Both the position numbers and the translations under genes were made by a program. The notes beneath the pieces were generated by a model. It searched no databases. It saw only the letters and a program-made list of their open reading frames with translations, and was not told the origin of the DNA. Of a DNA stretch of 64,000 nt, positions 3,388 through 62,533 are shown piece by piece. The DNA is from Cliona cf. orientalis. Its lineage: Eukaryota > Porifera > Demospongiae > Clionaida > Clionaidae. The stretch spans positions 18,995,775-19,059,774 of the forward strand of contig OZ005689.1 in the NCBI GenBank assembly GCA_963930775.1, written 5' to 3'. Position 1 is the first letter of the stretch. Each line of letters begins with the position of its first letter.

Positions 3388-3734
3388 TATGACACATTTC
3401 AGTATGTCTCCTTGTAATCGCTTGAGATCCTGCTGCAAGATACAAGTGTGCAAGAAGTAATCGATACTTTCCCACGATGCATGCGCAAGGATTCAAGATT
3501 ACGTGACTTTTGTGATGGTGAGCTATTTAGGGCACACCCTCTATTCTCTACTAACGTCAGCGCCTTGCAGATTATCGCCTATTTCGATGAATTTGAGGTA
3601 TGCAACCCTCTGGGAACACACATTAAACATCACAAGCTGGGAATAGTATTCTTTACATTGGGTAATATTCGTCCACGGTACCGCTCTTCTCTTAAATCTA
3701 GTAACAGTCGCTACTACTCCTGTGATTGAGAAAT
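3388..3734 (+). pseudogene. DxMHD transposase-like gene, N-terminal part (before the inserted MITE)
   Basis: The frame reads YDTFQYVSL, then a TAA near 3418, then EILLQDTSVQEVIDTF, then ALQIIAYFDEFEVCNPLG and HKLGIVFFTLGNIRPRYRSSLK. This is the conserved front part of a widespread animal repeat-encoded family whose core carries a D-x-M-H-D motif. A small deletion near 3700 shifts the frame, and a different frame (TPVIEK) leads into the AAAT at 3731-3734 where the MITE inserted. The family is usually annotated as an uncharacterised transposase-derived protein. Its catalytic chemistry is not established here; an RNase-H-like DDE fold is inference. Confidence 0.75.
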
Positions 3735-4387
3735 GTCACCTAATTTGGGAAAACCCTCCGTAAAGGATGCACGCACAATTCGCGCAATGCGCGTTTTTAG
3801 TAACTCAGGTAGAAATTTGTCAAAGTCCAGATTTTGTCATATACATGGAACAACCCTTCTAACTATTGTCGTCTTCTACGGAGGCTAGTCGTGCTATACG
3901 AAGGCAAAATAAGCCTTCATTTTGACCCACCTAGTCGGCACAGCCGCCGTACATGGAGCCCGTTGCTAAGGGAGCTAATTAGAATTCTCTAACTAGATAT
4001 AGCTAGATTCATCGAACTACTGTATGTTCGCTCACCTTTTTAGCTTCTTGGGCATCTAAGAACCTAAGAACAATCGGCTGTCGTTGACAACAACGAAATT
4101 CAAGTCTTGCTTGATCTTGGCGTTCATTTCAAACAGCTCCGCCCAGGTCCATTTAATTGATTTCCGGGTCGCTCGTAGTATGCGAAAATGCCATACGCAT
4201 GCATAGCAACGACTTTAGACCGTAATTTCTCGATTATTGGGGGTGTGACGAGATCGCAAAGTGCTGTATCTCCACAACGAAGCGCGCGATGCCTAAAACT
4301 TGAATTTGGGTTAGCTCTATGGTAGAGCTTATCAACCATACATCAAACGGAAAAAATTCGTTAGAGGGTTTTCCCGAATCCAGTCAC
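3735..4387 (-). mobile_element. AWWT-family MITE, copy A (interrupts the DxMHD gene)
   Basis: 653 bp, bounded by AAAT at 3731-3734 and AAAT at 4388-4391. The left end GTCACCTAATTTGGGAAAAC is a mutated form of the family end GTGACCGGATTTGGGAAAAC, and the right end is its inverted partner. Removing the element plus one AAAT joins VIEK to KYGLHKILEP in one frame, so this is a true insertion with a 4-bp duplication. On the minus strand the copy retains the conserved IKWTWAE...LNFVV stretch and the AAAAAGGTGAGC splice-donor-like sequence seen in every other copy. Confidence 0.9.
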
Positions 4388-5765
4388 AAATATGGTCTTC
4401 ATAAAATTTTAGAACCATTTATGAAGGATTTAAATATTTTAGCTACTACTGGAGTTCAAGTACGAGTTGATGGCATTGAAAGGACGTATAAGGGGCTCTC
4501 TTAACGTTTCTTGCGGACAATCTCGGAAGCAATGCCCTAGGAAGATTCAAAGAGTCCTTTTCTTTCTCCTTTAGGTACTGTCGGACATGCCTAGGCACTA
4601 GTGACGAGGTGAAATCTAGTTTCAACTCGAATGACTTTGAGCTATGAACCAGTGATATCCATGACGAGCATGCATTGTAAGCACCTTGAAAGTGAAGCTA
4701 GATCACATTTTTCCACAACATATGGGATTAACACTCATTCTTGTTTAATGGATGTGAATTATTCAATGTTTGATGGTGGATTACCTCATGATTGTATGCA
4801 CGATGTCCTAGAAGGTGTTGCTGCACATGAAGTTAAGCTCTTACTCTCTTACTATTTTTCTGTAAAGTATTTATCATTGGATGATTACAATAAGCGGTTA
4901 TTTAACTTTAATTTTGGCTATACTGAAACTGATAAGCCTGTTCCACTTGTCATATCCAGATTCACAAAACAAATTATAAAATCATCGGCTTCTCAAATGC
5001 TCACTCTGATGAGAAACTTACCTTTCCTGATTGGCAAGAGTGTTCCTGAAGGTGATGAGCACTGGAAGTGTTACTTGATTTTGCTGAAAATTCTAAATAT
5101 TAATATATTATACTGTGCCTTATGCTTCCTTTGAGTGTGTGTGCCACATTGAAACTGCTTATCATCCAGTACCACACTATGTACATTTTCATTTATGGTT
5201 CTGAGAATTTCATCCCGAAAATGCTCTTCCTAATTCATTATCCGAAACATATTTGTAGAGTGGGACCAATGACAAGGACATGGACAATGAGACGTGATGC
5301 AAAACTGAATTTCTTTAAGCAAGCTTCCCAAATGGCTAACCTTAAGAATATCGTGCAGGCATCAACGTTGGATGTGTTACGAGTTATCTATAGGATGCTT
5401 GTTTAATTCTTCCCTTGAGTGTGGACCAGGTCCTAGTCCATCCCCTTTACACCAGGAGAGTAGCTCCTTCAAGGGTGGTATAGCTACTGTGGTCCCCTTT
5501 TATAAGTATGGATTCGATGGTCTTTCATCCAGCGTGGGTACAGTATCAAGGTATCAAATATTTAGCGAACAATTGTTTTCTAATTAAAGGCTCAGATGGT
5601 ATTGACCAACTTTTCGTTCAACTGTGTAAAATTCTTGTAATTGGTGGTAATATTGTTACCTTTGTAGTATTAGATTGCAGGGTTCTCTATTTTGATGACC
5701 ATTTCCACTCATACGTTATTGAGATCACACCAAATAAACTAATCATTACAATGGATAATTTATGA
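4388..5765 (+). pseudogene. DxMHD transposase-like gene, core and C-terminal part
   Basis: Family-ordered blocks are spread over several frames: KYGLHKILEPFMKDL and VDGIERTYKG, then FLADNLGSNALG and FSFSFRYCRTCLG, then SHFSTTYGINTHSC and FDGGLPHDCMHDVLEG (4770-4815, the signature motif), then FNFGYTETDKPVPL and LPFLIGKSVPEGDEHW, then FIPKMLFLIHYP, RTWTMRRDAKLNFFKQAS, SSLECGPGPSPSPLHQESS and a final stretch ending ITMDNL at 5765. Frameshifts near 4500, 4670, 5110 and 5400, and a TGA after FEL near 4610, disable it. Together with the SAM exons this covers nearly a full-length member. Plant CACTA transposases share a D.MH-type motif, so a distant CACTA-type origin is possible but unproven. Confidence 0.8.
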
Positions 5766-8872: not shown

Positions 8873-9127
8873 ATTATGTGTACATGCATTAATTTTATAG
8901 TTACTAGCTACTGTTTGACATTAATATTTGCCTATAAACTTTATTCTATAGTAATTCTGTACAATACATAATATATATATTATACATACTGAGGACATGA
9001 GAGCAGCCGTTGGATGATATCGATAATGACCATCAGTTCTATCACAGCGTTAGTTTCGTATCAGCTATAGCATATTCACAATAATTATTGATCATTTCCT
9101 GCTGCGTAAAAACCCCGAAATCTTAGT
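8873..9127. other. No recognisable feature
   Basis: Short AT-rich stretch between the foldback element and the minisatellite; nothing supported. Confidence 0.4.
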
Positions 9128-9227
9128 TGAAATCCCAAAATCTCCAATGAAATCTCGAAATCCTGTGTGAAATCTTGAAATCTTACCTGAAACCCTGAAA
9201 TCCGGTATGAGATTTGGAAATCTCGTA
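9128..9227 (+). repeat. 20-bp minisatellite, about 5 units
   Basis: The unit TGAAATCYYGAAATCYYNNN repeats head to tail with divergence between copies, for example TGAAATCTCGAAATCCTGTG followed by TGAAATCTTGAAATCTTACC. Not open in one frame, so probably non-coding. Confidence 0.75.
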
Positions 9228-9567
9228 CGCTTTTTGGGGGCAAGGGAAGGTTTTGTTGTTTAAGCGGTAGTGCTGAGGGTATACATCATTTCATGATGTC
9301 CAAAAAAGATCTTTTCTAGCGACTGCTGATATTATCAGGGTCTAGGGTCATATTCAGATCAAGATTGAAGATCATCAGGGATGCCGAGTCAATGTCTGCC
9401 TGGGCATAATGCATGCCAAACTTGCCTATGAGCATTTTTTCTTATGCTTTTTGAAACACCCGTGAGTCTCTTAAGGACTGCTGATTTATGAGTAGCGATA
9501 GGAATCTGAAAACATACCATTATAGATACTATGGATGATAATACTTTAGATTCTACTTGTAACAAAT

Positions 9568-10163
9568 GTGACCAGATTTGGGAAAACCCTCCGTAAGGGA
9601 TCTGCGTGCGATTCGCGCAATGCGCGTTTTAGTAGCTCAGGTTGAAATTTATCAAAGTCCATATTATATATATGTCAAACAACCCTTCTTCTAACTGTTG
9701 GCGTTGTTTACGGAGGCTAGTCGTGCTATACAAAGGCCAAATAAGCCTTCATTTTGACCCACCTAGTCGGCACAGCCGCCGTACACGGAGCCCGTTGCTA
9801 TGGGCGCTAATTAGAATTCTCTACCTAGATACAGCTAGATTCATCAAACTACTGTACGTTCGCTCACCTTTTTAGCTTCATGGGCATATAAGAACAATCA
9901 GCTGTCGTTGTCAACAACGAAATTCAAGACTTGCTCTATCTTGACGTTCATTTCAAACAGCTCCGCCCAGGTCCATTTAATTGATTTCCGGGTCACGCGT
10001 AGTATGCGGAAATGCCATACACGCGCATAGCAATGCCTTTAGACAGTAATTTCTCGATTGTTGGGGGTGTGGCACGATCGCAAACAAAGTGCTGTGTCTC
10101 TACAATGAAGCGCGCGATCGGCCTGAAACATGAATTACGGAGGGTTTTCCCGAATCCGGTCAC
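9568..10163 (-). mobile_element. AWWT-family MITE, copy B (left part of the composite)
   Basis: 596 bp with both family terminal repeats, ending GGTCAC at 10163 before the internal AAAT (10164-10167). The minus strand again shows IKWTWAE, a LNFVV stretch and the donor-like AAAAAGGTGAGC (rc near 9860-9875). A TGA interrupts the short frame. Confidence 0.85.
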
Positions 10164-10838
10164 AAATATGGTCTTCATAAAATTTTAGAACCATTTGTGA
10201 AGGATTTAAGTATTTTAGCTACTACTGGAGTTCAAGTACAAGTTGATGGCATTGAAAGGACATACAAGGGGGTCTCTTAACGTTTCTTGTGGACAATCTC
10301 AGAAGCAATGCCCTAGGAGGATTCAAAGTGTCCTTTTCTTTCTCCTTTAGGTACTATCGGACATGCCTAGGCACTAGTGACGAGGAAAAATCTAGTTTCA
10401 ACTCGAATGACAAACCAGTGATACCCATGACAAGCATGCATTGTAAGCACCTTGAAAGCGAAGCTAGATCACATTTTCCCACAACATATGGGATTAACAC
10501 TCGTTCTTGTGTAATGGATGTGAATTATTATTCAATGTTTGATGGTGAATTACCTCATGATTGTATGCACGATATCCTAGATGGTGTTGCTGCATACGAA
10601 GTTAAGCTCTTACTAACTTACGGTTTTTCGGTAAAGTATTTATCAGTGGATGATTACAATAAGCGGCTATTTAACTTTAATTTTGGCTATACTGAAACTG
10701 ATAAGCCTGCTCCACTTGTCATGTCCAGATTCACAAAACAAAAATTTATAAAATCATCGGCTTCTCTAATGCTCACTCTGATGAGAAACTTACCTTTCCT
10801 GATTGGCAAGAGTGTTCCTGAAGGTGATGAGCACTGGA
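10164..10838 (+). pseudogene. Captured fragment of the DxMHD transposase-like gene
   Basis: This is a second copy of the region 4388-5068. It reads from KYGLHKI (after AAAT) through FLVDNLRSNALGGFK and FSFSFRYYRTCLG to TYGINTRSCVMDVN, then FDGELPHDCMHDILDG and FGYTETDKPAPL, and ends at VPEGDEHWK, where MITE terminal sequence begins. Its frames are less broken than those of 4388-5765; 10289-10838 is open throughout. The break in the middle of a conserved block shows it was never a complete gene at this site. Confidence 0.85.
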
Positions 10839-10883
10839 AGAATAAATCCCATACGGAGGGTTTTCCCAAATCCGGTCACAAAT

Positions 10884-11862
10884 ACTGTGATCTGATTGGT
10901 TAAACTGAAGTATCTATCCTTCATAGAAAATTATGTAAGCTCTGTAGTGTAGAAAATCATGCAACTTTTCTTGCCTATGGCAAGGGTGTAGATGGGGGGG
11001 GGGGGGGGGGGTGGGGGCTTTAGCTCCCCCCTCTGTTTGAGCAATAATGCATATACTATGTATGGGATTGTTAAAGTTGGATGAAATTCTAGTTGTATTC
11101 ACTGTAACCATACTTGGATAGCCAAAAATGTGCAACATATAATTGCTGGAAATAGCTGATTTTAATGCATTTTTAAGGTTCTGGAAACAATAGGATCAAA
11201 ATTTTCTACGCGCTTTGCGTGCGTGCGTGCAGCTGTCACAAAGCCCCCCCCCCCCCCCCCCCCCCACTTTGAAAATATATATTGTGACCGGATCTGAGAA
11301 AACCCGACATATTTGTCAAACGAGCATATGGCGCAATGCACGTTTTTAGTGTATAAAAGCTGTCAGTTTATACTGTGACGGTGACAGGTGCTATTCCATA
11401 AATTTTCCTAGATAACTGAACCTGCAAAGCATACACAAGGAATGTGTGTAGAGTACATGTACCTGTGTGCTATGAACAGTACGTCAGTGGTCGTTTTAAT
11501 GATGGTAGGTTCCTAGCTTCCCTTTTACTTGGTGAATATCTTTCATGATGGTTTCTGATTATCTCTAGTTGGTTGTAGAGCACTTTACATGGTTCACACA
11601 AGTTGAACAGAGGCCCACCATACTGCTGCTGCCTATTCTTAGGGATATGCTCTACTTAACATCTATCACTTTGATGACGGTCATAGGGAGTAGTAATGTG
11701 TACATAGTGTTTCAATTGGAAGTAAACTTCGGCACGATACTCCCTCAAGCCAGGACACCCAGAGTACGATAGAAGAGAAGCGAGTTAAGCGTTGACCGTT
11801 GACCTTTATCCAACTGAACAGCCCCTTTTCTATAGACTGTACATCTGTCTGGAAATCATACG
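10884..11862. other. Gene-free stretch with G and C homopolymers and a MITE-end fragment
   Basis: A run of G at 10994-11011 and a run of C at 11242-11265 lie about 230 bp apart in mirror orientation, possibly the ends of a degenerate element. At 11284 GTGACCGGATCTGAGAAAAC matches AWWT-family termini, but no matching right end was found. No coding sequence supported. Confidence 0.5.
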
Positions 11863-12196: not shown

Positions 12197-12918
12197 CATA
12201 CGTCACACTTCCGTCCTCCGTCGTTAGTACCAAAAAGGGGTCATATGTTGGAGGGCGCAGTGCTCTTTCCAGGGACATAATTAAGTTCATCTGTGGATAC
12301 AACACTCTGATTGTTACAATATCTTCCAATACACCTGGAAAGTGATACTTCACTTGATTACAAATTCTCACTACCTGTTTTAGAGTTAATAGTAGTTATG
12401 TCAGCAAGTTCTGTTGCAGATAGACTTGACATGGTTCCCCTAGTTTGTTCCATACTGTTAGAATCACCTGAACATTATTAAATTTACTTTAGGTGGTAGT
12501 TGGGGGGGATAATTTGTTGATAAAAGTCGCTGAGTCATACTAACCATTCCAGTGCTAGACAGGCCAGATGAAACGTTTGTGTGGCTACTTGATCCATTGA
12601 TTGTACTAGCGTTTTTCCGACAGTCTGTTAATAGTTGTTACGACTATGGGTAGGCGTTTGGGCTTCAGCTTGAAGTTCACGTTCTTCAGCATGCAAGAGC
12701 GCAATGGAGAGCTCTTTATAGAATGCAATTGAACCATTCTTGGAGACCACACGGTTGCAAGGCTTTGTCTTTTCTTTTGCTTTACAGAGGATTGCAGGTT
12801 GCTTGACAATAGTAATTATTTCTATTTTGCGCATGCCCAGAGGGCCATTGACGAGTTAGGCATGTAATTCAAAATTTGCGCGCATAAATTGAAATTCGTA
12901 TGTGCTGCAGAGAAAATT
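12197..12918. other. No supported gene
   Basis: AT-rich DNA with short open stretches on the minus strand only. It holds one copy of the TTGCAGGTTGCTTGACAAT motif (12792-12810), which recurs downstream at 14484 and 18245, and lies just upstream of the IS630-like transposase. Confidence 0.4.
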
Positions 12919-13879
12919 ATGCCAAGGTCGTATACAACAGATCTCCGCTGGCGAGCTGTGTGGCTGCACATAGCACACAGTCTTGATGTGACTGAAATTT
13001 CTCAACTGCTAGCCATATCCCCGAGTTCTGTATATAGGTATATCACACTATTTGAACAAACCGGTGACGTGAAGCCAAGGAGCTACCACCATGGGCCTCC
13101 AAAACTTTTGGGAGATATGGAACAATTGTTTATATTGAGAGTGATCACGTCTCATCCTGGGATTTATCTTAGTGAGATTCGCGCAAAACTTACCACCAAA
13201 TTTGGCGTGACCATGGACGTGTCGACTATCTGCAGGACTTTGAAATACATGGGCTGTACCCAGCAAGTGATACAGCGGATTTCACTACAGCGTAGTGATG
13301 AGGATCGAGCGAAGTTCATGGCGCAGGTTTCAATGTACGACCCATCCATGCTACTCTGGCTAGACGAAAATGGTTGTGATGGGCGTAACTGCAAGCGCAA
13401 GCGTGGTTACAACGTACGAGGCATGACACCGCAGGATCGACTACTTGTGCGAGGAACTCGATATTCGGCAATACCAATCATGTCCACCGAAGGCATTCAT
13501 GATATATTCCTACCGGAAGGAAACGTGAATGGTGATACCTTCGCAACATTTGTAAGGAGTTGCCTCTTACCAGTTTTGCAGCCCTTCAATTGGACAAACC
13601 CCCATTCTGTCGTCATTTTAGACAATGCATCCATACATACATCATGTTGATGTTATTTCAGAAATCACTGAGGATCAAGCAGGTGCTAAGCTGTTGTTTC
13701 TCCCCCTGTATTCACCCGACCTTAATCCTGTAGAGGAAGTATTTAGTAAAGTGAAAGGTATTATGAAGAATGACGCACTTTTTCAAGTGACCAACGTTCC
13801 AAGAGCATTGCTCACACTTTCATTTGCAATGGTGACAAAAGAAGATTGTCTTTCATACATCACTCATTCAGGTTATTAA
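12919..13879 (+). pseudogene. IS630/Tc1-like DDE transposase, broken by one 4-bp slip
   Basis: ATG at 12919 gives MPRSYTTDLRWRAVWLH, an N-terminal helix-turn-helix (ISQLLAISPSSVYRYI), a linker and a second DNA-binding region (VTMDVSTICRTLKYMG). The DDE domain follows: WLDENGCD (first Asp, codon 13363), VVILDNASIH (second Asp, 13621), and, after a frameshift, LPLYSPDLNPVEEVF (Glu, about 35-36 residues after the second Asp). The frame is lost where ACAT occurs twice (13635-13642); one fewer unit would restore it. The protein would be about 318 residues, near full length for the superfamily, and no other lesion is visible. It is therefore a young copy or a sequencing/assembly slip. Terminal inverted repeats were not identified with confidence. 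Confidence 0.85.
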
Positions 13880-17607: not shown

Positions 17608-17992
17608 GTGAAAGAGGGCCCATGGGCGGTGCTCCTTACATTGGGCCAAGATTGGGGATGGGCCGATATTCGAGTATCAGTATTTATACGCGAAAGAGCG
17701 CCCATGATAGGGTTACCCTCGCTGGCTTCATAATTTGAATAGTAACAGCGGCTATTATTGATTTCAGCCTTTTTCAAGCACGGTTACCAATCCAGAGCAA
17801 GGGCGGCTGCAATACTTCACCGTAGGTCTTAGAGTGCAGCCTTATTACGTGGGCGTGGCTATGATCGCTAGCTATGTACATTCGTATATTTCTGCTGAAA
17901 CGTGGCATAAAGCTAGTGAGCCCAAAGTGGGGGGTGGGCCGACATTCCGTAGTGGGCCCTCTTTCGCGAGGGTACGGTAGTTGTACAAATAC

Positions 17993-18110
17993 TGTGATTT
18001 GATTGGTCACTCAGAGGCCCGACTGTAGCATCCTGAGTAAAGTAAAGTGAAATAGTGGATCTCCAAGTGACTGATCAGATTTCTGACCTACCTTACCCTA
18101 AAATACCTTA
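17993..18110 (+). repeat. Dispersed repeat, copy 2 (partner at 15205)
   Basis: Diverged direct copy of 15205-15314, beginning near TGTGATTTGATTGGTCACTC. Confidence 0.65.
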
Positions 18111-22785: not shown

Positions 22786-25478
22786 CAGGGTTCTATTTAC
22801 TGGGAGGGGGGGGGGCAGGGGGGAAGCTTCCCCCCCCCCCCCCCCAAAAGCTCCAGCTTCTCCCCCAAAACCTTTCTATTACTAGTACTGCACATAATTC
22901 ATGAAATGAGGTGTAATGTACATTGAGTATGCTTAGGTACTAGGTGAGTGTTAAATAGAGTTCAAATTGCCAATGATGTAATAGGCCAGGGTGAGTATTA
23001 AATAGAGTTGTGTGGTGGTGCAATAGCCCTGATATGTGCTAGAAAGCTAGTCTAATTTTGCTGACTATATGGATAAATACGTGACCAGGCTCCCTTCTAT
23101 GGCAACCAAAAGAACAAGTGCAGATATTCACAATGAGTCTTCCGAATCATCCTCTGATGTGAACCCCCTGAGAAGACAATTGCTCTTTCTGATTCTCTTA
23201 CTCAGAGTTCGAGCCGTGGTTCTGGAAGCTCTTCTAGTTCAAGCAAAATGAGGTCTTATAAGGACAACCTATCATACGATCCCAAGTGGAAAATGAAGTA
23301 TCCTTGGATGGACTACAATTTTGCTTCAAAAGGTATGGTTGGCACAGTCTGTACAGTGTACGGGAACCCACCCAGTCAAGCTAAAGGTGCATGGGTAACA
23401 CGACCTGTGAGCAACTGGGTGAAGGCTACAACCATGCTGGCAAAGCATGATAAGTCTGACTGGCATAAAGCAGCTATTGAGAAACGATCCTTGTCTCTGT
23501 TAACTCAGAAGCATATGGTAGTGTTGTGGAGCAAATATTGTCAGTCAGTGAGGAAGAAAGGAGACAAAACCGGGAATTGATTAAAAAGCATATCCGTTCT
23601 CTATACTTTCTAGTCAAGCACCATATTCCTCACACCACCACGTTCGAGGGCCTTATTACCTTACAGATTGAAAATGGTGATATCAAGCTAAAAAATCATC
23701 GGGAAAAGTGTCCACGTAATGCCACATATGAATCCTATGCCACAGTTGTAGATCTACTTACAAGCATTAGTAAGGTACTTGAGAGCAATCTTCTGTCCAG
23801 TTTCGAGGCTAGTATGTATTTTTCACTGATGGCAGACGAAAGCACTGACATCTCTTCCAAAGAAGAGCTCTCAATAATATTATGTGCACGATAGTTGGAT
23901 AATAAAAAGCCAGTGGAGCACTTTCTGGGAATTATGCCTGCAAAAGAAACCACTGCTGAAGCTATTGCCAATTATTTGTTCACTTTCTTGGAGTCCAAGA
24001 ATATGGACATCACAAAAATGCGTGGACTAGGCTTTGATGGGGCTAATACAATGTCAGGCAAATGGAGTGGTGTTCAATTGAGGCTACGACTGCATTCACC
24101 CAGTGCCATATATGTGCACTGTCGATGCCATCAACTTCAATTGGCTGCGGTGAATGCTGCTAATGAGCACATGGAAGTGAAACGAGTGTTGGGCACTCTG
24201 CTAACTATCTGGAAAGCATTTCACTACTCTCCAAAAAAAGCAGAGAAGTTGGCTGAGATACAAGCTGAGCTAAATACTCCTGAGCTCAAAATGCAGAAGC
24301 CTAGTGACACTCGCTGGCTAGCACGAGAGAGGGCTGTGCGTGCTATTCGACGAAGTCTACCATCATTGGTAGGTACATTTGAAGAGATATATGAAGAAAC
24401 GGGAGATGCAGAAGCTCATGGAATTGCTTCACTTTTGACCAAGTACAACACTGTGGCTTGCATTTATATGCTGCCTGATGTACTGCACACTGTAGCTAAG
24501 CTACAAGGAAGCTTACAGGGTAAGGAGGTAGATCTAGCCAGTGTGCCTTTGATGGTTGAAAGCACAACCCAACAGTTGAAGGAGCTCAAAGAGAACATAG
24601 ACAGTAGTACATGGTTTAAGGACCACTATGCTGTGTTTACTGATCCTTCACAACTTGGAGCAAAAGATATTGATGTCACAGAGTCAATGAAAACACAATT
24701 TCTTCAAAATGTGTACCGTCCATACATACAAAGCGTGATAGACCATATCGGTGGAAGATTGGAGTCAACAGATATCATCTCTTCAATGTCTGTGTTTGAC
24801 CCCCGTCACCTTCCCGATGATGAAGAAAAACTAAGTGACTATGGCATAGAGAAGGTTAAGACTCTGAGTGACTTCTACGGTTGTGTGCAGGAAGTACACT
24901 TTGATGGAAATAAAGGTGTCTCAAAGCCAGATATTGATCCAGAAGATACAGAGTCTGAATGGAAGCTTTTTCGTCGACTTATATATGTACAGCACAAAGA
25001 CAGCTCTTTACAGCAAGTTCTGTCAACATTACTGAGTAGTGCAGATATTGCAGCAGCATTTCCTAATCTGGCCAAATTAGCAGCTGTTTTGATTGTGCTC
25101 CCTGTCACTACTGCTACCGTTGAGCGAACATTCAGCAGCATGAAGCTAATAAAGACAAGGCTTCGTAGCAGAATGGGTGAGAGTACACTGGAGCATGCTA
25201 TGCGCATTTGTATCGAAGGCCCATATCAATTGTCCAACGAAACTCTTGAGGCAGTGATAGATCACTACAAACATGCAAAAAAGCGAAGATTGACACTTTG
25301 AAACTCAGTAACTCAAACTATTTCTATTTTTTGAGTGTATATATACTTGCTTTGTAATCAATATTATTGTGATAATGTGCAATGGTACAGTACTAGTACT
25401 AATTTTGTATTCAGTCCGGTGGGGAATTATTATTTCACCAGCTTCCCCCCCAAAGAAAAAATCCTAGATAGAACCCTG
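22786..25478 (+). mobile_element. hAT transposon, 2.7 kb, both ends present
   Basis: CAGGGTTCTATTTA at 22786 and the inverted TAGATAGAACCCTG ending at 25478 are short hAT-style terminal inverted repeats. G-rich and C-rich subterminal tracts follow on each side. It encloses the transposase pseudogene 23069-25301. I could not establish an 8-bp target duplication; the flanking bases (GTACTGTA and CTGTAGCT) share CTGTA at shifted positions. Confidence 0.8.
23069..25301 (+). pseudogene. hAT-family transposase (ZNF862/DUF4371-type), two frameshifts and one stop
   Basis: N-terminus MDKYVTRLPSMATKRTSADI, then a Ser-rich segment. A frameshift near 23200 leads to the zinc-finger-like region KMKYPWMDYNFASKGMVGTV and GAWVTRPVSNWVKAT. 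A second shift near 23520 gives EQILSVSEEERRQNRELI and FSLMADESTDISSKEELS, the DUF4371/RNase-H-like region with its ADEST motif. A TAG at 23892 replaces a probable tryptophan. 23895-25301 is then open for 468 codons: HFLGIMPAKETT, GFDGANTMSGKWSGVQ, HCRCHQLQLAAVNAA, SDTRWLARERAVRAI, and a C-terminal hAT dimerisation region with TTATVERTFSSMKLIKTRLR. About 740 residues in total, usual for the family. Only three lesions, so a fairly recent loss. Confidence 0.9.
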
Positions 25479-39602: not shown

Positions 39603-40910
39603 AGATTTTGGGGAGGGTTGTCACACAGCTTCGACTGAACCCTACTTTTATGATTCAGCTTACAAGCCTGTAAAGAGAGACTATGCCTTGCCAATAGACA
39701 AATGTGGAAAGTGTGTGTTGGCCAGTGAAATCACTGATGATGATGATAAGACTACCAAACGCAGTAGCAAACCCAAGCCCATGAAGTGGGCATGCACTAT
39801 TGAATGCAAAAAAAATCAATGGTGATGAAGTGCATGCCATTATTGAATTGAAAGAGTCATTTGACCAGCCCGTACAGGAGGTGCGGCAAGCCTTAGACAT
39901 TTGTGATAGTGACTGTCCCAATCTGCACTTCACAAAGCGTGTACATAAGGTGGTTGTTGACCATGAAAGTGATCCCTCGGTTAGCTCTGACGATGGGGAG
40001 TGTCACAATGTATACGAGAAAGAGATCGGTGTTGATCGTCTAGGTCATCCTCTGGTTTGTTCCAATGATGGGGGGTGTCGCAGTAAAATACGTATACTCA
40101 GAGACGCTGCAACGCATTACCCATTGTTGACTAAACTACTGCGTCTTGTGTATAGTGCTGTGAATAGTCACAAGTGTGTGCAAAACATTGATAATGCTCT
40201 GTCTGCTGGTGATTACCATACCCTTATGGATATCACCGACTTGAATGATTTTGAAGCTATGTTTAGCAATGAGGTTGAATCCACGTACGAGCAGTGCGCA
40301 GATTCTGCTGACTCTGAGCTGGTAAAGCCTGGTATAGAAATGAAGCTGCTGACTAAGCATGCTCAGTTAATAGCTGACTTAGAGAAAGAAAGTGAAGATG
40401 ACCCTGAGCATGTGTGCTGTAGCTGTGAGTGCCTCTATCAGAGAAAAAGTGTGACACGAGTCACTCTCTGATAATCTTAGCGAGGACATATGGCCTACAC
40501 TAAAGCAGTACATACTAGAGATAAACCCTGCTGCTGATGACCAGACACTGTACATGTGCAGCTATTGCAAGTCTATCATCAAGAAAAATAAATTGCCTCC
40601 ACGTTGTGTCCTCAATGGGTTAGAAACAGTCCCCATTCCATCTGAACTGTCGAAGCTAGACGCTTTGAGTAGCCAGCTAACTCAGCGTGCTAAATGCTAC
40701 CATACTGTGATCAGACTCGGTACGTACACTGCTAAGGTACCAGTCTACAATTCACTCAAAGCGTGCAAGGGAACAATGTTCTTTCTTCCATTGCCATTGA
40801 ATAAGACGCTTGAAACTCTGGATCAGGTTGAGAGCCACAGCAATGGGGCATCGTCTTTGCCTGATCCAGAGTTATACATTATAGTGAATGGAAAACCAAA
40901 CCACCTCTAA
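39570..40910 (+). pseudogene. Helitron region upstream of Rep, cysteine-rich and DUF6570-like
   Basis: Blocks in three frames: SMQIKGAEDFGEGCHTASTE to CGKCVLASEIT; then DEVHAIIELKESFDQPVQEV and YPLLTKLLRLVYSAVNSHKC to HVCCSCECLYQRKSV; then MCSYCKSIIKKNKLPPRCVL, NGLETVPIPSELSKL and GTMFFLPLPLNKTLETLDQV. Paired cysteines (CCSCECLY, CSYCKSI) suggest a zinc-binding module, and the last block is the DUF6570-like region that commonly precedes the Helitron Rep domain. Frameshifts lie near 39820, 40460 and 40890. Confidence 0.7.
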
Positions 40911-42942
40911 GGTTGTGTGGCGTAGCCTGGTCAATGTAGACAACGTTAAGACAGCCGTACAGAAGCTTAGGGAGATCAACTGGCTGTATAGTGAAGTGAA
41001 AGATGATTCTGTTGATGATGTTTCAAAGAAAGTCATAGAGATTGCCGACAATGCCTCTAGTACTATGCTAGACAAAGCGGATGAGCATGATATATCTGGC
41101 TTTCAGGCTTTCACAATCAGAAATCTTGACAAGCTGTCGACTGAATCTGACATTGAACAGTACAAACTGTTGAGTGTCAGAGAAGATCCCATTGACAATC
41201 GACAGCAGCACCTCGATGTAATGTGCTTTCCCAAGTTGTATCCCACAGGAAAATTTGGTAAATACCATCCACGTGATGTGAAAATCTCCCATAGTGAGTT
41301 TGACAAGTCGAGGTTGCTCAATAAAGATTCCCGTTTCAGAAAAGACCCACAGTATGTGTTTTATTTGCTGTGGCAAAAAGAAATGCGAGAGCTTTCTGCC
41401 GGTGTGTACAATATGTTGAAACAGTCTAGAAGAAGCCAGCCTATGACTGTTGGCACACTCTTGAGCAACGTACAGGCCAACAATGAGCAACTCGAAGCGA
41501 ATCTGTGTACAATGCTTCAGTCTGTACGCGGCACAAAACAGTACTGGTTTGTGAGAAAGAGTGAACTGAGGTGTATGATACGCGAGTGGGGTTCACCCAC
41601 ACTGTTTCTCACATTTAGCTGTGCCGAGTACGAGTCCCCTGACATTGAAAACTACCTCAGAAAGGTAAACGATGTTCCTCCTAGCTACAACGTAGGGAAG
41701 CTTTGCACAGAGGACCCAATATCAGCGTCACGAAAGTTTAGTAAAAAATTCCACTCTTTCTTTCAAAGGGTAGTGAAGAAAGGAGAGGTGCTTGGTACGG
41801 TAGACCACTTTTACTGAAAAAGGAATACCAAGCACGTGGTACCCCCACACTATCATGTCCTTCTGTGGATCAAAGATGCACCAGTGATAGGTCGAGATGA
41901 CCCCGACGAGGTGCTAGGGTGGATTCAGGAGAGGATAACCTGTCACATTCCTAATAAGGAATCCGATCCTGAATTGTACAACCTAGTCACCAGGTATCAG
42001 ATGCACAAGTGTAGTGGCTATTGCAAGCGCAAAAGAAAGTGTGGTAATGTGTTTATCACCAGATGTAAATTCGGTTTTCCACGGATACCTTGTGAGAGCG
42101 CCAAGTTGAATCCTGTTACCGACAGTCTCAAGTCGCGTAGCAAAATATACCAGTTGGCACGTGCGGAGTCGGAGACTAGAGTCAATGACTATAACCCACT
42201 CTTGCTATTGCTATGGAAGGCCAACATTGACATTTAATTTGTAGCAGAGTCATCGCTAGCTTTAGCTCACTATGTTAGTGGTTATGTCACTAAGGCTGAG
42301 AAAAGTAGCATGCAAGAGATTTGGCAGGAGGTGAGTGACAACAAGAGCATTTACAGCCGGCTCTGGAGCTTTGGTGTACGGAGTTTGCGCTCTAGAGAGT
42401 GCGGCCTCTATGAGGCCAGGGATTTGTTACTTGGCGATCACCTCACTGAAAAATCCGCTACTGTCAAGTGGATAGACGACGTGTCCAAGCCACAGAAAAG
42501 GAGCCGTAGGCTGAAGGACCACAGAGAGTTGGAACAGCTGGCCCAGCATGATCCTAACAACAAGGATATATACGAAGAGAGTCTATTGGACACACACTAT
42601 CCCAAGAGACCGGATAGTCTGGAAGACGTCTGTCTCTACGACTTGGTGGCCAACTACTTGTGGCAAAGTACTGACGATAACGGGAAAAGGCAGTATACCA
42701 AGCTCAAAAAGCCATGTCTTCCAAACCACAAGTTGTTTGATCCTCAAAAGGAGAATCAACGAGAGGACTACTTCTACTCTCTCATACTTCTCTTTGTTCC
42801 ATTCAGGGATGAAAGTAGTCTGCTTCTCAAGAATGAAACGGCAGAGGAGGCCTTTCACAGGCTGATGAACGAGGACGGCTCTGCCTACCATGACAAGTTG
42901 CAAAAGATCTTGGATGCACAGTCTAAGATGACAGATCAATGA
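40888..42942 (+). pseudogene. Helitron Rep (HUH nuclease) domain
   Basis: One dominant frame. The Helitron-like N domain includes LDVMCFPKLYPTGKFGKYHP, FYLLWQKEMRELSAGVYNML and WGSPTLFLTFSCAEYESPDI. The HUH motif is PHYHVLLW (about 41841-41864). The region SGYCKRKRKCGNVFITRCKFGFP follows, and later HYVSGYVTKAEKSS holds the typical YVxxYxxK tyrosine segment (two tyrosines). Lesions: a local out-of-frame patch with a stop at 41815-41817 just before HUH, a TAA at 42235 replacing a probable glutamine, and loss of frame near 42930. HUH nucleases nick single-stranded DNA and link to it through tyrosine; this copy cannot make a full protein. Confidence 0.85.
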
Positions 42943-43069
42943 GGCCAGAAAGGCTGATGGTGAGGAAAAGAGGGTCGACAAGGACGACGACCCTCAGTTG
43001 ATGGGTGAAGCCAAAACTGCCATGCATGACATGGCAGATATGCTTGTAAATCATTCCACATCCATCTGA

Positions 43070-44480
43070 CCAGCTGAGCTTTGAGGATAGGATAGCCATG
43101 TTAAATACCGACCAGAGGCGTATATTTGATAGCGTGGATAGTCACCTTCAACACCAAAAGCAGCATGAAACCGGTGAGTGTCAGTGTGACTTCAAGCCAC
43201 TTTGAATGTTTGTCAGTGGCGTAGGTGGTACGGGTAAATCTTTCCTAATTGAAGCCATTAAGCTCTTGGTAGGAAAGATTTGGCCGTCAAAAGAAGTGAT
43301 GGTGGCTGTCGCTGCACCCACTGGTTTAGCTGCTTTTAACGTTGGAGGTCTGACCATTCATAGGCTCTTTCAGCTGCCCATAGAGCACGAGGGTAAGTCG
43401 GCTGAATATTGGTCGCTATCTGAAGTCTCGCAGAAAGTCATGAAGACTAAATTGCGCAGTGTGAAATTGATAGTTGTGGATGAAATATCCATGGTGTCCA
43501 GTCTCACATTGACGTACGTGCATTTGAGATTGGAAGAGCTATTCGGTGGCGATGAGTGGTTTGGTTGTAGGAACATGATGTTTGTTGGAGATCTACTTCA
43601 ACTACAACCAGTAAATGGAAATCCGGTATTTCAAAACATCACACAAAAAGCACTTCTGCACAAACTGGGGTGCGCTGCGTCCGTTAATATTTGGCGAGAC
43701 TCGGTTGCTTATGATGAGGTCACCATTAACGAGCGCCAAAAGAGTGACGCAGAATTCGCCACAATGCTGGACTGCGTGAGGCGCGATTGTCCAACCAACG
43801 AAACTATTTTAACACTTCAGCAAAGAGTCATTCAGGTAGCTGAGGCTGAAAAATTCGATGAGCTGCAGCAGTTGGGTCAGGCACTGGTGTGTCTGTTCCC
43901 GACGAGAGAAATGTGCAAACAGTTTAACAGTGAAATGCTCCATCACTTGAGCAGTGAGGTGCACGAAATAGTGTGTACAGACGAAGTCGACCAAACTTCG
44001 TCGACGAAAAAATGGAACAAGAAGACCATTGAGCAGCTGGAAAAGCTCAACAATGACTGTAGCAGGACAGCTGGTTTGGAAGCTAAGCTATTGCTAGCAG
44101 TCGGTGCACGAGTCATGCTACGTCGTAACATTGACACCAAAATTGGACTGGTAAATGGTGCCCTCGGCACGGTACTTTCCATCTCAAGCAAACGTGTAAC
44201 CGTCCAGTTCGATCACGTGAGCGAGCCTTACGACGTAGACAAAGTACAGACTAAATTTATGGTCATGAAAAATTTTATGTCTACAGAGAGCAGTTTCCGC
44301 TTATTCTGGCATATGCGGTGACCATACACAAATGTCAAGGCCTGTCCTTAGACTGTGCTATTGTCGATCTGTCCGACAAAGTCTTTAGTGCGGGCATGAC
44401 ATATGTGGCATTGTCGAGGGTGAGATCACTTGCTGGGTTGCATCTGTCGGCATTTGATCCAGTCCATCATAGTAAGTCCT
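43070..44480 (+). pseudogene. Helitron PIF1-like helicase domain
   Basis: DQLSFEDRIAMLNTDQRRIF leads, after a TGA at 43203, into Walker A GVGGTGKS (about 43215-43238), AAPTGLAAFNVGGLTIHRLF, Walker B VVDEISMVSS, MMFVGDLLQLQPVNG, then LLLAVGARVMLRRNIDTKIG and LVNGALGTV. A frameshift near 44265 moves to [13 protein letters not shown] and [16 protein letters not shown], the final helicase motifs. The 5'-to-3' PIF1-type helicase unwinds DNA during rolling-circle transposition. All motifs are readable and only the frame is broken. Confidence 0.88.
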
Positions 44481-45335
44481 AGCTGCCTCCAGGAGGCTAA
44501 TAGGTTGAGAGAAGCATACAGGAAAGATCTCCCTTTGTATCGAATGCCGTCCAAGGTACAACCCAGCAGTTTGGGTGTGAAATGTAAGCTCACTGGTAAT
44601 AATGAGGTTAATCCTGCCAAAAGGGTGAAGCTTGCGGTAGCCAAAGCGAAAAAAACGCTAAATAAGCCATTGCCTAAGCAAGTACAAACTTCGTCTACCA
44701 AGACGAGGAAAAGGTCCCTGCCACTGAGCAGTGATTGTAATAGACCCAACAATGTGCCATGTGCTAGTGACCATGTACAGGGAGGAAGTGGAACCTGTCC
44801 ATTCAGATTCCATCCCATAGACGAAGCCTGGCAGCGTGCTGCATGCCGCCGTGTTGGTGTTAATTTTGTGACAAAGTGTGACCTAGGTGAAGGCGGTCCC
44901 AATGTCCCTCTCACTCAACCACGTAGGTGCAGACTCATTGAAGGAGATGGCAACTGTTTGTTCCGATCCTTTTCATATCTCATAACTGGAACTGAACGAC
45001 AGCACGCGCAAGTGCGTCGGGCAATTCTAAACCACTTACGCGTTATTGAGCGTTGGATGTTGCCCCATTTCAGTGATCGGGGTCTCAGTGCCACTGGGTA
45101 TATTGAAGGCACTCACATGGACAGAAATGGAACGTGGGGTTCGGATGTTGAAATTTTGACTTTAGCCCATAATATGTTAAACACTTGTGTGTATGTATAC
45201 GACCCAGAATATCGCAGTTGGGATCGGTATGGACCCCACAATGTTGATCGGACACTTAGTTCTGATATAACAGACATGTCTATGTTCATTTGACACCCAC
45301 CAGATCATTTTGATGTTGTGTGTACAATTACATAG
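44480..45335 (+). pseudogene. OTU-type cysteine protease domain at the Helitron C-terminus
   Basis: After a Lys/Arg-rich linker (KRVKLAVAKAKKTLNK, TKTRKRSLPLSS) the frame reads IDEAWQRAACRRVGV, then RLIEGDGNCLFRSFSYLITG (about 44935-44996) with the catalytic Asp and Cys in DGNC, HAQVRRAILNHLRVIERWML, TWGSDVEILTLAHNMLNTCV and YVYDPEYRSWDRYGP. A TGA at 45291 cuts it after SMFI; the next codons, HPPDHFDVVC, hold the expected catalytic His. OTU proteases usually cleave ubiquitin chains; their role in Helentrons is unknown. Confidence 0.88.
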
Positions 45336-57858: not shown

Positions 57859-59165
57859 GCAGTGACTAAAGTAGATGCTCCTAAGACTGTTAATGTATCC
57901 CCTGGTGTTGAAGCGGCATTGACAGAGAAGATGGCCAGTATGAACAGTGTTACGACTGATGGTTATGAGCACACTCTCGGTCCAGTACCAATGTATGAGA
58001 TACTAGTGAATGGGGTTCCACTGAAAGCTCTAGTTGATACGGGGTCCCCTGCTACTGTGATTTCACTTGACCGTGTTGTAGATATCCTAGCTCAGGACAG
58101 ACCACATTATGACAGCGTTGAGCAGTGGAAACTTGCGATGCAGAAGCAGCTTGAGCCACCCACTATGCTACTGAAGAGTTACTGTGGAAGTAAGTTAAAT
58201 CTGGTGGCACAGGTCAAGCTCCAGATCGCAACAGTGAGTGGACAGAAGATCGAAGCGATGGTCCAAGTACAAGAAGATGCTCCTGTGGACTTGCTACTGG
58301 GAACAGACCTCCAACCCCTTCTCGGATTTTCTCTTAATGTGAGTGTGCCTGGTGAAAACTCGTGTGATCTGCTATGAGGCTCAGAACGGGACGAGACTCC
58401 AGCTGATACCATTCCGAGCAGTGAAGAGGAGAAAGCTCATGACAACAAGATCCCACCTACCCGATCAACCCTTCGCAAGGAGTCTCCACCCTTCGTTCCT
58501 GAGAATGCTACCTCACCTACTCCACCACCAAGTCTGACTGTTAAGTTACTACAAGCCAGTTGCATCCCGGCTCGGCATCAGAAAGTGATCAAAGTGGAGA
58601 TTGAGGAAGGTGAGGGTGATTCTTTGTTCATGTTTGCACCTAACCCTAACCAAGTTGAGTTGCAACAGCATGGGTTGGTAATGGTGGATTCCATTATGGA
58701 TGTGGAAGGGGATCATTGTGTAAAGTTACTAATCGAGAACCACTCCTATGAGCCTCGCCATTTGAAAGAGGGTATGGAGTTAGGGGAAGCACAGCCTGTC
58801 CAGTTGTTGTTAAAGGAGACCGAGACTGGAGTTATGCTTGAGCCCACTTTACCCCCTACTAGTGATGACCCTTACATTGCTGCTCTAAAGAATATGCCTG
58901 CCCAATTAAGACAGAAGAAGCTACTAGAATTGTTAAATCTGAAAGATATTCAGCTTGAACCCGATCATATGGCCCAACTTGAGTCTTTCCTAGCAGAATG
59001 GGCGGATGTTTTCGCTCTAGACCACACAGAGCTTGGTTCCACTGATGTTACTCATCACCATATCGAGACGGGAGAGCATTCCCCTATACGACAGCCCATG
59101 CGTAGGACACCCTTTGCTCTTGGAGATAAAATTGATGCAATGGTAAAGGAGATGGCAGAGCAAGG
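57740..59165 (+). pseudogene. pol: Retropepsin region and linker to RT
   Basis: Frame 1 from the zinc knuckle through the protease: PVPMYEILVNGVPLKALVDT then GSPATVISL (active-site DTGS) and DLLLGTDLQPLLGF. A TGA at 58375, probably from an arginine CGA, is followed by a long open linker in the same frame (SIMDVEGDHCVKLLIENHSY, AEWADVFALDHTELG) up to a 1-bp loss near 59165, where the RT frame begins. Aspartic protease releases Gag and Pol proteins in the particle. Confidence 0.85.
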
Positions 59166-59815
59166 GTGATACGTCCATCCAGGAGTCCTTGGTCGAGTCC
59201 TGTAGTGCTCGTCCGAAAGAAAGACCACACTATGCGATTTTGTGTAGACTATCGCAAATTGAACTCCATCACGAAGATGGATAGTTTTCCACTCCCTCGA
59301 ATCGACGACATGCTAGATATGCTGTCCCAGTCGAAGTTCTTTACCACTCTAGATTTAGCGTCAGGGTACTGGCAGGTGGAGATGGAGCCTGCATCAAGCG
59401 CTTTTACTACCTATTCTGGTCACTATGAGTTCACAAAGATGCCTTTTGGCCTCTGTAACGCGCCGGCCACGTTCCAGCGCTTGATGGAGACAATATTGGC
59501 GGGACTGGTGCGCACTTGTTGTGTTGTGTATTTAGACGATATCCTGGTGGTTGGTAGGACAGTAGAAGAGCACCTTGATAATTTGAAGAAAGTTTTTGAG
59601 AGACTGCGAGAAGCTGGTCTCAGGCTTAAGCCTAAGAAGTGCTACTTTCTGAGGGAGGAAGTGGAATATCTCGGCCACGTGGTGTCAGCCGATGGCGTTA
59701 GACCTGATCCACAGAGGTTGACTGCAGTACGTAACTACGCACAACCTACTGATTTGAAATCACTTCGAGCGTTTCTAGGGTTAGCATCCTATTACAGGAA
59801 GTTTATTCCTCATTT
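59166..59815 (+). pseudogene. pol: Reverse transcriptase domain, interrupted by a MITE
   Basis: Open for 217 codons: SRSPWSSPVVLVRKKD, FCVDYRKLNSITKMDSFPLP, the LDLASGYWQVEM motif (first catalytic Asp), MPFGLCNAPATFQRLM, the YLDDILVVG catalytic box (YxDD, about 59527-59553), EYLGHVVSADGV and LRAFLGLASYYRKFIPH, where the MITE begins at 59816. The frame is undamaged up to the insertion. Confidence 0.93.
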
Positions 59816-60423
59816 GTGACGGGATTTGGGAAAACCCTCCGTATGGGATTTTTTCAGAAAATTGAGTTTGATGCATGGTTGATAAGCTCTAGCATAGAGC
59901 TAACCCGTGTTCAAGTCTTAGGCCGATCGCGCCACACCCCCAATAATCGAGAAATTACGGTCCAAAGGCGTTGCTATGCACGCATATGCCGTTTCCGCAT
60001 ACTACTCGTGACCCGGAAATCAATTAAATGGACCTGGGCGGAGCCGTTCGAAATGAACGTAAAGATCGAGCAAGAGTTGAATTTCGTTGTTGATAACGAC
60101 AGACGATTGTTCTTAGATGCCCAAGAAGCCTAAAAAGGTGAGCGAACATACAGTAGATCGATGAATCTAGCTGTATCTAGGTAGAGCATTCTAATTACCG
60201 CCCATAGCAACGGGCTCCGTGTACTGTGGCTGTGCCGACTAGGTGGGTCAAAATGAAGGCTTATTTCACCTTCGTATAGCACGACTAGCCTCCGTAGAAG
60301 ACGGCAACAGTTAGAAGAAGGGTTGTTCGACATGTATATGACAAAATCTGGACTTTGACAAATTTGGACCTTAGCTACTAAAAACGCGCATTGCGCGAAT
60401 CGCGCGCGGATCCCATACGTCAC
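59816..60423 (+). mobile_element. AWWT-family MITE, copy E (inside gypsy pol)
   Basis: 608 bp flanked by ATTT (59812-59815 and 60424-60427). Orientation is opposite to copies A-D, so its exon-like frame is on the plus strand: RKSIKWTWAEPFEMNVKIEQ, then ELNFVVDNDRRLFLDAQEA and the donor AAAAAG|GTGAGC near 60138. The right terminal repeat has lost about 20 bp (GATCCCATAC directly joined to GTCAC). Element plus duplication is 612 bp, a multiple of three, but stops inside it end the RT frame. Confidence 0.93.
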
Positions 60424-61105
60424 ATTTCTCTCGTGTGGCTAGCCCACTGCACGCTCTTACCTACAAAGATGTCCCATTTGACTGGTCTGCTGAGTGCCAG
60501 CAGGCATTTTAGACCCTGAAGCGATTGTTGACAGAAGCTCCAATATTGGCCTATCCGGATTTCACACGTGATTTTCTACTGGAGACAGATGCTTCTGGTG
60601 CTGGGCTTGGTGCCGTCCTCGCCCAAAGATGAGATGATGAACAGATTCGGCCAGTGGCTTACGCCAGTTGTACACTCCAGCCCCAGGAGAAGAATTATGG
60701 GATTTCGGAGATGGAAGCCCCAGCTGTGGTCTGGGCCATGAAGCACTTCTGCTCATACATCTATGGTCACCACTGTGATGTTTATACAGACCAATCTGCT
60801 CTGAAGGCACTTCTTAACACCCCACATCCATCCGGCAAACTTGCCTGTTGGAGTATGGTATGGCTATCCAGGAGCTTGATTTGACGATCTACCACCGCGC
60901 CGGGAAACACAATTCCAATGCTGATGCTCTCTGTCGGGCTCCAGTGCCAACCGACTCTAGCAGTAGTGCTGATACGGAAGACACGTTTGGTATCATTGGT
61001 GCCATAAATGCAGAAGACTGTGTACCTCAAGTGGACTTATCCAATCTACCTACAATTACAGGACCCAGACTTAGTGGGGATAATCACTTACCTCAAGATA
61101 GGTGA
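60424..61105 (+). pseudogene. pol: RT connection and RNase H domain
   Basis: Downstream of the MITE the same frame resumes at SRVASPLHALTYKDVPFDW. In-frame stops follow at 60510 (TAG after CQQAF) and 60630 (TGA after LAQR). RNase H motifs: [52 protein letters not shown] shift near 60845 leads to AIQELDLTIYHRAGKHNSNA and DALCRAP. The RNase H digests the RNA of RNA-DNA hybrids during reverse transcription. Confidence 0.88.
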
Positions 61106-62533
61106 ATTACCGGAGGACAGCCGAAGAGCCAGAGAACTGGCATTATCAAAGTCACAGTACATCATCCTTCGAGATAATGTTCTATACTATGTTAGATCCG
61201 ACAAGAGTCTTCGAGTTATTCCCCCGAAGAACTACCGTGAGAAGCTGTTCAAGGAAGCTCACGCTGGAGCGTTTGGTGCACATCTCGGAGAGACGAAAGT
61301 CCACAGTCAGTTGAGTCGCCATTATTGGTGGAATGGGATGCGCGCTGATATCTCCAAATGGTGCAAAGCCTGCCTAATCTGTGCTACTCGTCCTAGCCGA
61401 CCCATACGAGTGCCGCTCACCCCGATTCCAGTAGCCGGACCATTTGATAGAGTAGGAGTGGACATCATTCAGTTCCCACACTCACATGATGGCAATAAGT
61501 ATGCAGTACTCTTTGTGGATTACTTAACTAAATGGCCGGAAGTATTTCCTACTGCCGACCAGAGTGCTGCTACAGTAGCCGATCTTCTGGTAAGAGAAGT
61601 TGTGAGTTGTCACGGAGTTCCAGGCGAGTTATTATCTGATTGGGGGAAGACATTTTTATCCGGGCTTATGTCTGAAATTTGTAAGTTGTTGGGCATTCAC
61701 AAGCTCAACACTACCGCTTACCATCCCCAGACAGATGATCTGGTGGAGCGGTTTAACCGCACCCTCACAGCGATGTTATCTAAGACAGTGGAGAAGAATG
61801 GAAAAAACTGGGATCGCCAGTTACCGTGCGTGCTGTTTGCTTATCAAACAAGCCGACAGGAAGCTACTAAGGATTCACCCTTTTTCTTGATGCATGGGAG
61901 AGACCCACGGCTACCGACGGAGGCTGCCCTAGACTATCCAGTGGAGCGAGAGCATAATGATCTTGGAGAGGATGGTGCCGAGTTAGCTGAGAACCTGACT
62001 GAAGCCTGGGAGTCTGCACGAAGTTGTATCAAGCAGGCCCAAAGTAAGCAAAAGAAGAACTACGATAGTCGTGCATCTACTTCGTCTGCCCCTTTTCGAG
62101 TTGGCCAGAGAGTGTTTGTCTACAAGCCATCTGCTAAATCCGGCCCCGCCTACAAGTTTGCACGACCTTTTCACAGGCCGTACCGCGTGGTGGAATTGAC
62201 CGCGAACAATGCAAGTCCGTCCAGTCGACAGACCAGAGGAGGAGCCGATATTCGTGCCTTAGATCGCCTCAGAAGGTGTTCAGACGAGATACCCCATTTG
62301 TTTTGGCCAAGAAAGGTGGAACAGCGAGAACATATCCTCCCACAACAGATGAAACCGCGGATGCTGTAATCGATGCACCCTCCAAGCATTCTGTGTCTAA
62401 GAGATCCCCTAAAAGAGCTGCTACTGGAGCCACGCCCACACCCCGAGAACTCCCAAAGAATAATCTTTGGCATGGTAGGCTGCAAGGAAGGAAACATGCG
62501 GGGACGCCTGTTGGTGAGGAGGGGGATATGTAG
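61008..62533 (+). pseudogene. pol: Integrase and C-terminal tail
   Basis: Zinc-binding HHCC region: HAGAFGAHLGETKVH ... KWCKACLIC. The core has GVDIIQFP (first Asp), LLSDWGKTFLSGL (second Asp, with Trp where Arg is usual) and YHPQTDDLVERFNRTL (Glu, with Asp replacing the usual Gly), then the GPY/F-like C-terminus FRVGQRVFVYKPSA and FHRPYRVVEL. A shift near 62310 leads to a Lys/Pro-rich tail ending GEEGDM, whose stop codon TAG is formed by the first bases of the 3' LTR (62529-62533 TGTAG). The substitutions near the catalytic site suggest loss of function. Confidence 0.88.
62512..62528 (+). promoter_or_regulatory. Polypurine tract
   Basis: GGTGAGGAGGGGGATA immediately precedes the 3' LTR, the usual position of the purine-rich primer for plus-strand DNA synthesis. 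Confidence 0.75.

What the first reader, a model, noticed from the sequence alone, without database searches (positions are those of the whole stretch)
9564..10883. Composite element: MITE ends have mobilised a 671-bp gene fragment
The 1,312-bp unit is bounded by family ends and by AAAT on both outer sides, and contains a full MITE, the exact MITE/gene junction seen at 4387/4388, gene sequence, and only the last 38 bp of a second MITE. Outer duplications show that the whole unit moved, not just the MITE. This is a bacterial-style compound transposon arrangement and a route for exon shuffling in an animal.
Basis: seen in the sequence. Interest (0 to 1): 0.75.

Follow-up and report, generated by a model that had tools for sequence, protein, structure and literature searches.

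The report
Small transposon patched with neighbouring transposase fragment
A short non-autonomous DNA transposon has a 671-base piece of a nearby, broken transposase gene inside it, most likely copied in during DNA repair rather than carried there by a jump of the whole unit, so it is an ordinary example of a kind of event already described in animals.

Summary
The anatomy is real. Unit 9568-10879 = a 597-bp MITE, AAAT, 671 bp also present from 4392, and the last 40 bp (not 38) of a MITE, between AAAT copies. The family has a 29-bp inverted repeat and a variable 4-bp target duplication, identical pairs in 40 of 42 copies. The outer AAAT is a genuine duplication: joined with one AAAT, the flanks form an intact stretch of another repeat (1,512 genome hits to a 32-base junction pattern, up to 3 mismatches). 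One insertion therefore supplied both outer ends.

That the whole unit moved is not shown. No second copy was found. The unit's left ~170 bp and right 40 bp score as MITE subfamily 2; the left end of the MITE at 3735 does not. Further right, the inner MITE is sister to the 3735 MITE (99/96). Best reading: a resident MITE was repaired from the MITE-bearing locus 5 kb away, copying past that MITE's end into neighbouring sequence. The mosaic is suggestive, not proven (AU tests do not reject the alternative). The captured 'gene' is a tnp2-like transposase remnant, so exon shuffling is not shown. Closest known: single-copy Pack-TIRs made by gap filling. Low interest.

The parts
9545..9567 (+). Left flank: last ~22 bp of another abundant repeat's border, ending in the left target-site duplication AAAT (9564-9567)
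   Evidence: 22-23 bp leftward match in 8 of 8 loci (loci picked as exact matches to the junction pattern)
9568..9740 (+). Left part of the resident MITE (subfamily 2 type); right border uncertain, about 9732-9778
   Evidence: log10 odds +9.67 for subfamily 2; site list
9773..10164 (+). Donor-type right part of the MITE, sister to the MITE at 3735-4387; lacks about 65 bp of the consensus near the right end
   Evidence: (99/96 support, 51 rows)
10165..10168 (+). Inner AAAT, same junction as at 4388-4391
10169..10839 (+). 671-bp fragment of a tnp2-like transposase ORF, also present at 4392-5067
10840..10879 (+). Right 40 bp of the resident MITE (subfamily 2 marker CCATACGG)
10880..10883 (+). Right target-site duplication AAAT
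10884..10947 (+). Right flank: continuation of the same host repeat
   Evidence: ungapped extension 64 bp in 6 of 8 loci, 23 and 27 bp in the other two
3735..4387 (+). Copy A MITE (653 bp) with its own AAAT duplication (3731-3734 and 4388-4391), inserted in a tnp2-like ORF: proposed donor
4392..5067 (+). Parental sequence of the captured fragment; the reading frame continues past 5067 as in homologues, with no MITE end there

Best explanation
A subfamily-2 MITE inserted at 9568 into a copy of another repeat, duplicating AAAT (shown, through paralogous empty sites). Separately, another MITE had inserted at an AAAT in a tnp2-like transposase ORF at 3731 (shown: homologues read through the site). 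Later a break or stalled fork inside the resident MITE was repaired with the MITE of the 3731 locus, about 5 kb away in the same orientation, as template (inferred). Synthesis ran through that MITE's right half, across its end into 671 bp of transposase sequence, then rejoined the last 40 bp of the resident MITE at a junction with one shared base (inferred from the mosaic). The product has both outer ends and could in principle transpose as one unit, but I found no sign that it has.
For: Outer AAAT is one insertion's duplication. Two MITE copies contributed: the inner right end shares with copy A a G at 10152 seen in 0 of 50 other copies, while the outer right 40 bp carries the subfamily-2 marker. 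Log10 odds for subfamily 2 over 1: unit left segment +9.67, unit right 40 bp +5.05, copy A left -1.63, copy A right -4.68; copy A, also an old copy, is a control that age alone does not give a positive score; 47 of 48 other copies agree in sign between left and middle segments. At sites where the subfamilies differ in frequency by at least 0.15, unit and copy A agree at 3 of 9 left of 9760 and 15 of 16 to the right (Fisher p 0.003; other cut-offs are weaker, see against). Right-part tree: unit + copy A sister, 99/96, 51 rows; left-part trees put them apart. No second copy found and donor close by, as in the published single-copy, cis-biased pattern of gap-filled elements (passages of PMC8277862).
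Against: Forcing unit and copy A together in the left segment lowers the log-likelihood by 12.3 or 7.1 but is not rejected (AU p 0.133 and 0.30), and the left tree has no well-supported branch around the unit. The site contrast depends on the cut-off: frequency difference 0.3 gives 2 of 4 against 6 of 7 (p 0.49), 0.5 gives 2 of 4 against 5 of 5 (p 0.17); by log-odds, 0.35 gives 2 of 16 against 8 of 27 (p 0.28), 0.8 gives 1 of 6 against 6 of 6 (p 0.015). Unit middle-segment log-odds are +3.68 although its right-part tree places it in a 23-row, mainly subfamily-1 set. Raw identity of unit and copy A in the middle is unremarkable (0.907, rank 37 of 41). MITE parts differ more (24 of 204 left, 33 of 353 right) than the gene part (35 of 665). 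Later conversion of copy A's left end by another MITE would give the same mosaic.
Confidence: 0.62

Rival explanations
1. Composite transposition: the MITE at an allele of the 3731 locus plus a second, mostly deleted MITE downstream were cut out at the two outer ends and inserted together at 9568. If copy A's left end was later converted by another MITE, the mosaic is explained too.
For: The outer ends share one true AAAT duplication; the unit has the same MITE/gene junction as 3731; AU tests do not reject a common origin of the two left segments.
Against: No second copy found. The outer left end scores as subfamily 2, copy A's does not. Copy A's reading frame continues past 5067 as in homologues, with no MITE end. 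Needs a second insertion, a deletion and a transposition.
Confidence: 0.22
2. Unequal crossover between the resident MITE and the MITE at 3735 duplicated the ~5.8 kb between them; a deletion then removed all but 671 bp of it up to the resident's last 40 bp. Also independent of transposition.
For: Same orientation, 5.8 kb apart; gives the same mosaic and the same outer duplication.
Against: Two events rather than one. No direct test made; no remnant of the duplication would be left to find.
Confidence: 0.1
3. Two independent MITE insertions happen to sit 671 bp apart, and the matching AAAT is coincidence from target preference.
For: AAAT is common: 8 of 42 copies, 6 of 40 without the unit and copy A.
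Against: The outer flanks are contiguous, with a single AAAT, in paralogous sites including three met without selecting for the junction and 1,512 pattern hits.
Confidence: 0.02

Closest known systems
Single-copy Pack-TIRs made by gap filling in animals (Tan et al. 2021, PMC8277862; seen: outline with abstract, Introduction, passages)
   Same: TIR-element ends around captured sequence, one target duplication, no second copy, parent nearby on the same chromosome, little microhomology at the junction, internal breakpoint.
   Different: [quoted passage not shown] here the captured sequence is from a transposase ORF. The parent here carries the same MITE at the junction; the paper excluded parents with TEs in the flanking 100 bp.
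End-bypass transduction by P elements (as described in the same paper's Introduction)
   Same: Element plus flanking sequence.
   Different: Here the far end is a genuine 40-bp element end, not a chance downstream sequence.
Pack-TYPE elements of plants (PMC8903248; search listing only)
   Same: Non-autonomous TIR elements carrying captured coding sequence.
   Different: Here no second copy and no sign of movement after capture.
Bacterial compound transposon (recalled)
   Same: Related ends flank a segment.
   Different: The right partner is 40 bp, and no second copy of the unit was found.

Membership tests
MITE | Terminal inverted repeats, high copy number | tested here: met
   29-bp TIR pattern with up to 3 mismatches: 648 forward + 633 reverse genome hits, 0 in the control
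MITE | Fixed-length target-site duplication | tested here: met
   4 bp; identical in 40 of 42 copies with both ends resolved; 3 further rows dropped
MITE | Mobilised by a related autonomous element | not tested
   Autonomous partner not sought; superfamily not determined
Pack-TIR | Non-TE sequence captured | tested here: not met
   ORF family matches Pfam Transposase_21 in homologue L078 (29.7 bits, cut-off 28.6); L070 (22.7) and L069 (17.1) are below the cut-off; the fragment itself has no Pfam match
Pack-TIR | Ends of one TIR element around the capture, with one target duplication | tested here: met
   One duplication; both ends of one subfamily:
Pack-TIR | Parent identifiable and free of TE within 100 bp | tested here: not met
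   Parent identified, but a MITE abuts it at 4387
Compound transposon | Two full element copies flank the segment | tested here: not met
   Right copy is 40 bp
Compound transposon | Evidence of movement as a unit | tested here: inconclusive
   True outer duplication, but no second copy found

The most novel reading that the evidence does not exclude
A MITE sitting in a gene acts as a homologous landing pad: any other copy of the family under repair can invade it, run off its end into the neighbouring sequence and bring that sequence back inside an element with intact ends. In a genome with over a thousand TIR hits this would be a systematic, homology-primed capture route that surveys excluding TE-linked parents would miss.
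Probability: 0.25. Interest if true: 0.5.

Novelty: new member of a known kind. Interest (0 to 1): 0.25.

Why it matters
It shows how a target-site duplication around a composite can mislead: the duplication marks the arrival of the host element, not necessarily of its cargo. It also gives one well-marked case in which the probable template of a gap-filling event can be named, because the donor MITE left its own junction in the product. If such homology-primed captures proved frequent, surveys that exclude TE-linked parents would undercount capture. On its own, one captured transposase remnant is ordinary.

Tried and rejected
Flank searches for an allelic empty site: left (9000-9567) and right (10880-11450) flanks matched other places only in pieces, and the two fetched left-flank relatives (L065, L066) do not carry the unit-proximal right flank. 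Empty sites came from the joined flanks and junction patterns. The 8 loci were picked as exact matches to the junction pattern, so their contiguity over 32 bases is by selection; what they add is the extension beyond it.

A chance AAAT match was considered and rejected after the empty sites. Nearest-relative searches and identity ranks were uninformative, unit and copy A both being diverged. Shared-rare-variant counts were weak: 0 of 22 variable sites left against 8 of 41 right (Fisher p 0.042); 0 left and 7 right (p 0.04-0.10 by cut). In one search the unit shared as many or nearly as many rare states with L105 (9), L103 and L102 (6 each), whose right parts are not MITE, and 5 each with WIN_15319 and L036. 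AU tests did not reject unit + copy A on the left. Copies were chosen by similarity to the unit, so the sample leans to unit-like and young copies.

The gene fragment itself had no Pfam match; only homologues did. Whether other composites of this kind exist did not complete: one search lists 100 of 1,281 TIR places. MITE superfamily and organism were not determined.

Papers: PMC8277862, outline with abstract, section 4 and passages; all others only in search listings. 'Pack-TIR' occurs in 1 paper of the library.

Full report
Setting. The organism was not identified, so 'animal' is untested.

What is there. Between AAAT at 9564-9567 and AAAT at 10880-10883 lie 1,312 bp: a MITE of 597 bp, AAAT, 671 bp of other sequence and a 40-bp MITE right end. 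The MITE and the 671 bp, with the same junction, also occur at 3735-5067 (copy A; gene part 630 identical and 35 mismatched positions with 3 gap blocks). No second match to the whole unit was found (40 of 1447 candidates scored), and the 671 bp has two DNA-level copies.

The family. Most of the fetched copies are 660-670 bp long, with TIR GTGACCGGATTTGGGAAAACCCTCCGTAA (1,281 genome hits with up to 3 mismatches, 0 in the control). Target duplications are 4 bp: of 42 copies with both ends found, 40 have identical pairs: ATAT 23, AAAT 8, AATT 6, ATTT 3. The count includes copy A and the unit's inner MITE with its inner AAAT; three rows lacking an end were dropped. Because AAAT is common, matching AAAT alone proves little.

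Empty sites. Joined with one AAAT, the unit's flanks read as an unbroken part of a different repeat: 2,287 hits to a 24-base pattern and 1,512 to a 32-base pattern, each with up to 3 mismatches. BLAST of the joined flanks against loci fetched for other reasons met three such sites: L024 (62 bp, 89%), one C6 site seen in both L015 and L016 (44 bp, 86%), and window 17978-18007 (31 bp, 90%). Eight loci picked as exact pattern matches extend the match 22-23 bp to the left and, in 6 of 8, 64 bp ungapped to the right (23 and 27 bp in the other two). The outer AAAT is thus the duplication of one insertion. At copy A the MITE interrupts an ORF; the joined frame (LVTVATTPVIEKYGLHKILEPF) aligns without a gap to homologues such as L069-L072, so AAAT is a true duplication there as well.

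What moved? The single insertion could have been the whole unit, or a plain MITE that was patched afterwards. These differ in the origin of the left end. Two subfamilies can be told apart by a right-end marker. With 48 copies, log10 odds for subfamily 2 over 1 are +9.67 for the unit's left segment and +5.05 for its right 40 bp; copy A gives -1.63 (left) and -4.68 (right); left and middle segments disagree in sign in 1 of 48 other copies. At sites where the subfamilies differ in frequency by at least 0.15, unit and copy A agree at 3 of 9 left of 9760 and at 15 of 16 to the right (p 0.003), but stricter or other cut-offs give p from 0.015 to 0.49. The right-part tree joins unit and copy A with 99/96 support (51 rows, four truncated copies left out; 95/91 with them in). 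The left-part trees put them apart, the unit near L059, L098, L041_908 and other copies and copy A with the subfamily-1 copies, mostly with weak support. Against this, AU tests on the left part do not reject them as sisters (p 0.133; p 0.30), and the unit's middle segment scores +3.68. The case for a mosaic is suggestive, not closed.

Mechanism. The simplest reading is that a resident subfamily-2 MITE at 9568 was repaired from copy A, about 5 kb away: invasion through MITE homology at about 9732-9778, copying through the donor MITE's end into the transposase sequence, and return at a junction with one shared base to the resident's last 40 bp. Shown: two MITE contributors at the two right ends, one target duplication, the shared junction with copy A. 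Inferred: the repair event, its direction and that the left end is the resident's. Unequal crossover followed by deletion would look the same. Composite transposition, with later conversion of copy A's left end, remains possible.

Cargo. Homologues of the captured ORF match Pfam Transposase_21 (tnp2): L078 at 29.7 bits against a cut-off of 28.6, L070 (22.7) and L069 (17.1) below it. Some homologues are nearly identical to each other over the fetched ~3.6 kb (L078/L079 99.97%, L070/L071 97.6%), as expected of a transposon. A 215-codon open frame runs from the cargo through the MITE end (10256-10903), but an open frame is not evidence of a gene.

Comparison. Tan et al. 2021 (PMC8277862) report 370 animal Pack-TIRs, nearly all single copy and attributed to gap filling, with a bias to nearby parents and short microhomology. 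This unit works like one of those. It fails two of their criteria (non-TE cargo; parent without a nearby TE), so I do not file it as a Pack-TIR in their strict sense. It is a known kind of event with an unusually traceable candidate template.

Noticed in passing
G000 C1:17.7-36.3 Mb: Of 90 exact TIR matches (all exact ones are listed, by my count), 63 lie on contig C1, every one beyond 17.7 Mb, a stretch of under a tenth of the genome: the young copies of this family are concentrated in one chromosome region.
   Followed up: no
window 59812-60419: A further copy of the MITE family, minus strand, lies between the reverse transcriptase ORF (59136-59819) and the integrase ORF (61008-62369) of a Gypsy-like retroelement (Gypsy label recalled).
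   Followed up: no
window 39785-45293: Series of ORFs including a PIF1-like helicase (43206-44321), resembling a Helitron-type element; the label Helitron is recalled, not tested.
   Followed up: no
window 12868-13650 and 23895-25301: DDE_3-type and hAT-type transposase ORFs; the window is rich in transposon remnants.
   Followed up: partly
window 9545-9567 and 10884-10947: The repeat into which the unit inserted (TAGATCCTACTTGTAACAAATACTGTGATCTGATTGGTT...) is itself very abundant, over 2,000 junction-pattern hits.
   Followed up: partly
L061 (G000 C1:19938422-19939496): The only other MITE copy of 48 whose left (subfamily 2 type, +2.67) and middle (subfamily 1 type, -4.07) segments disagree: a possible second recombinant.
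   Followed up: no
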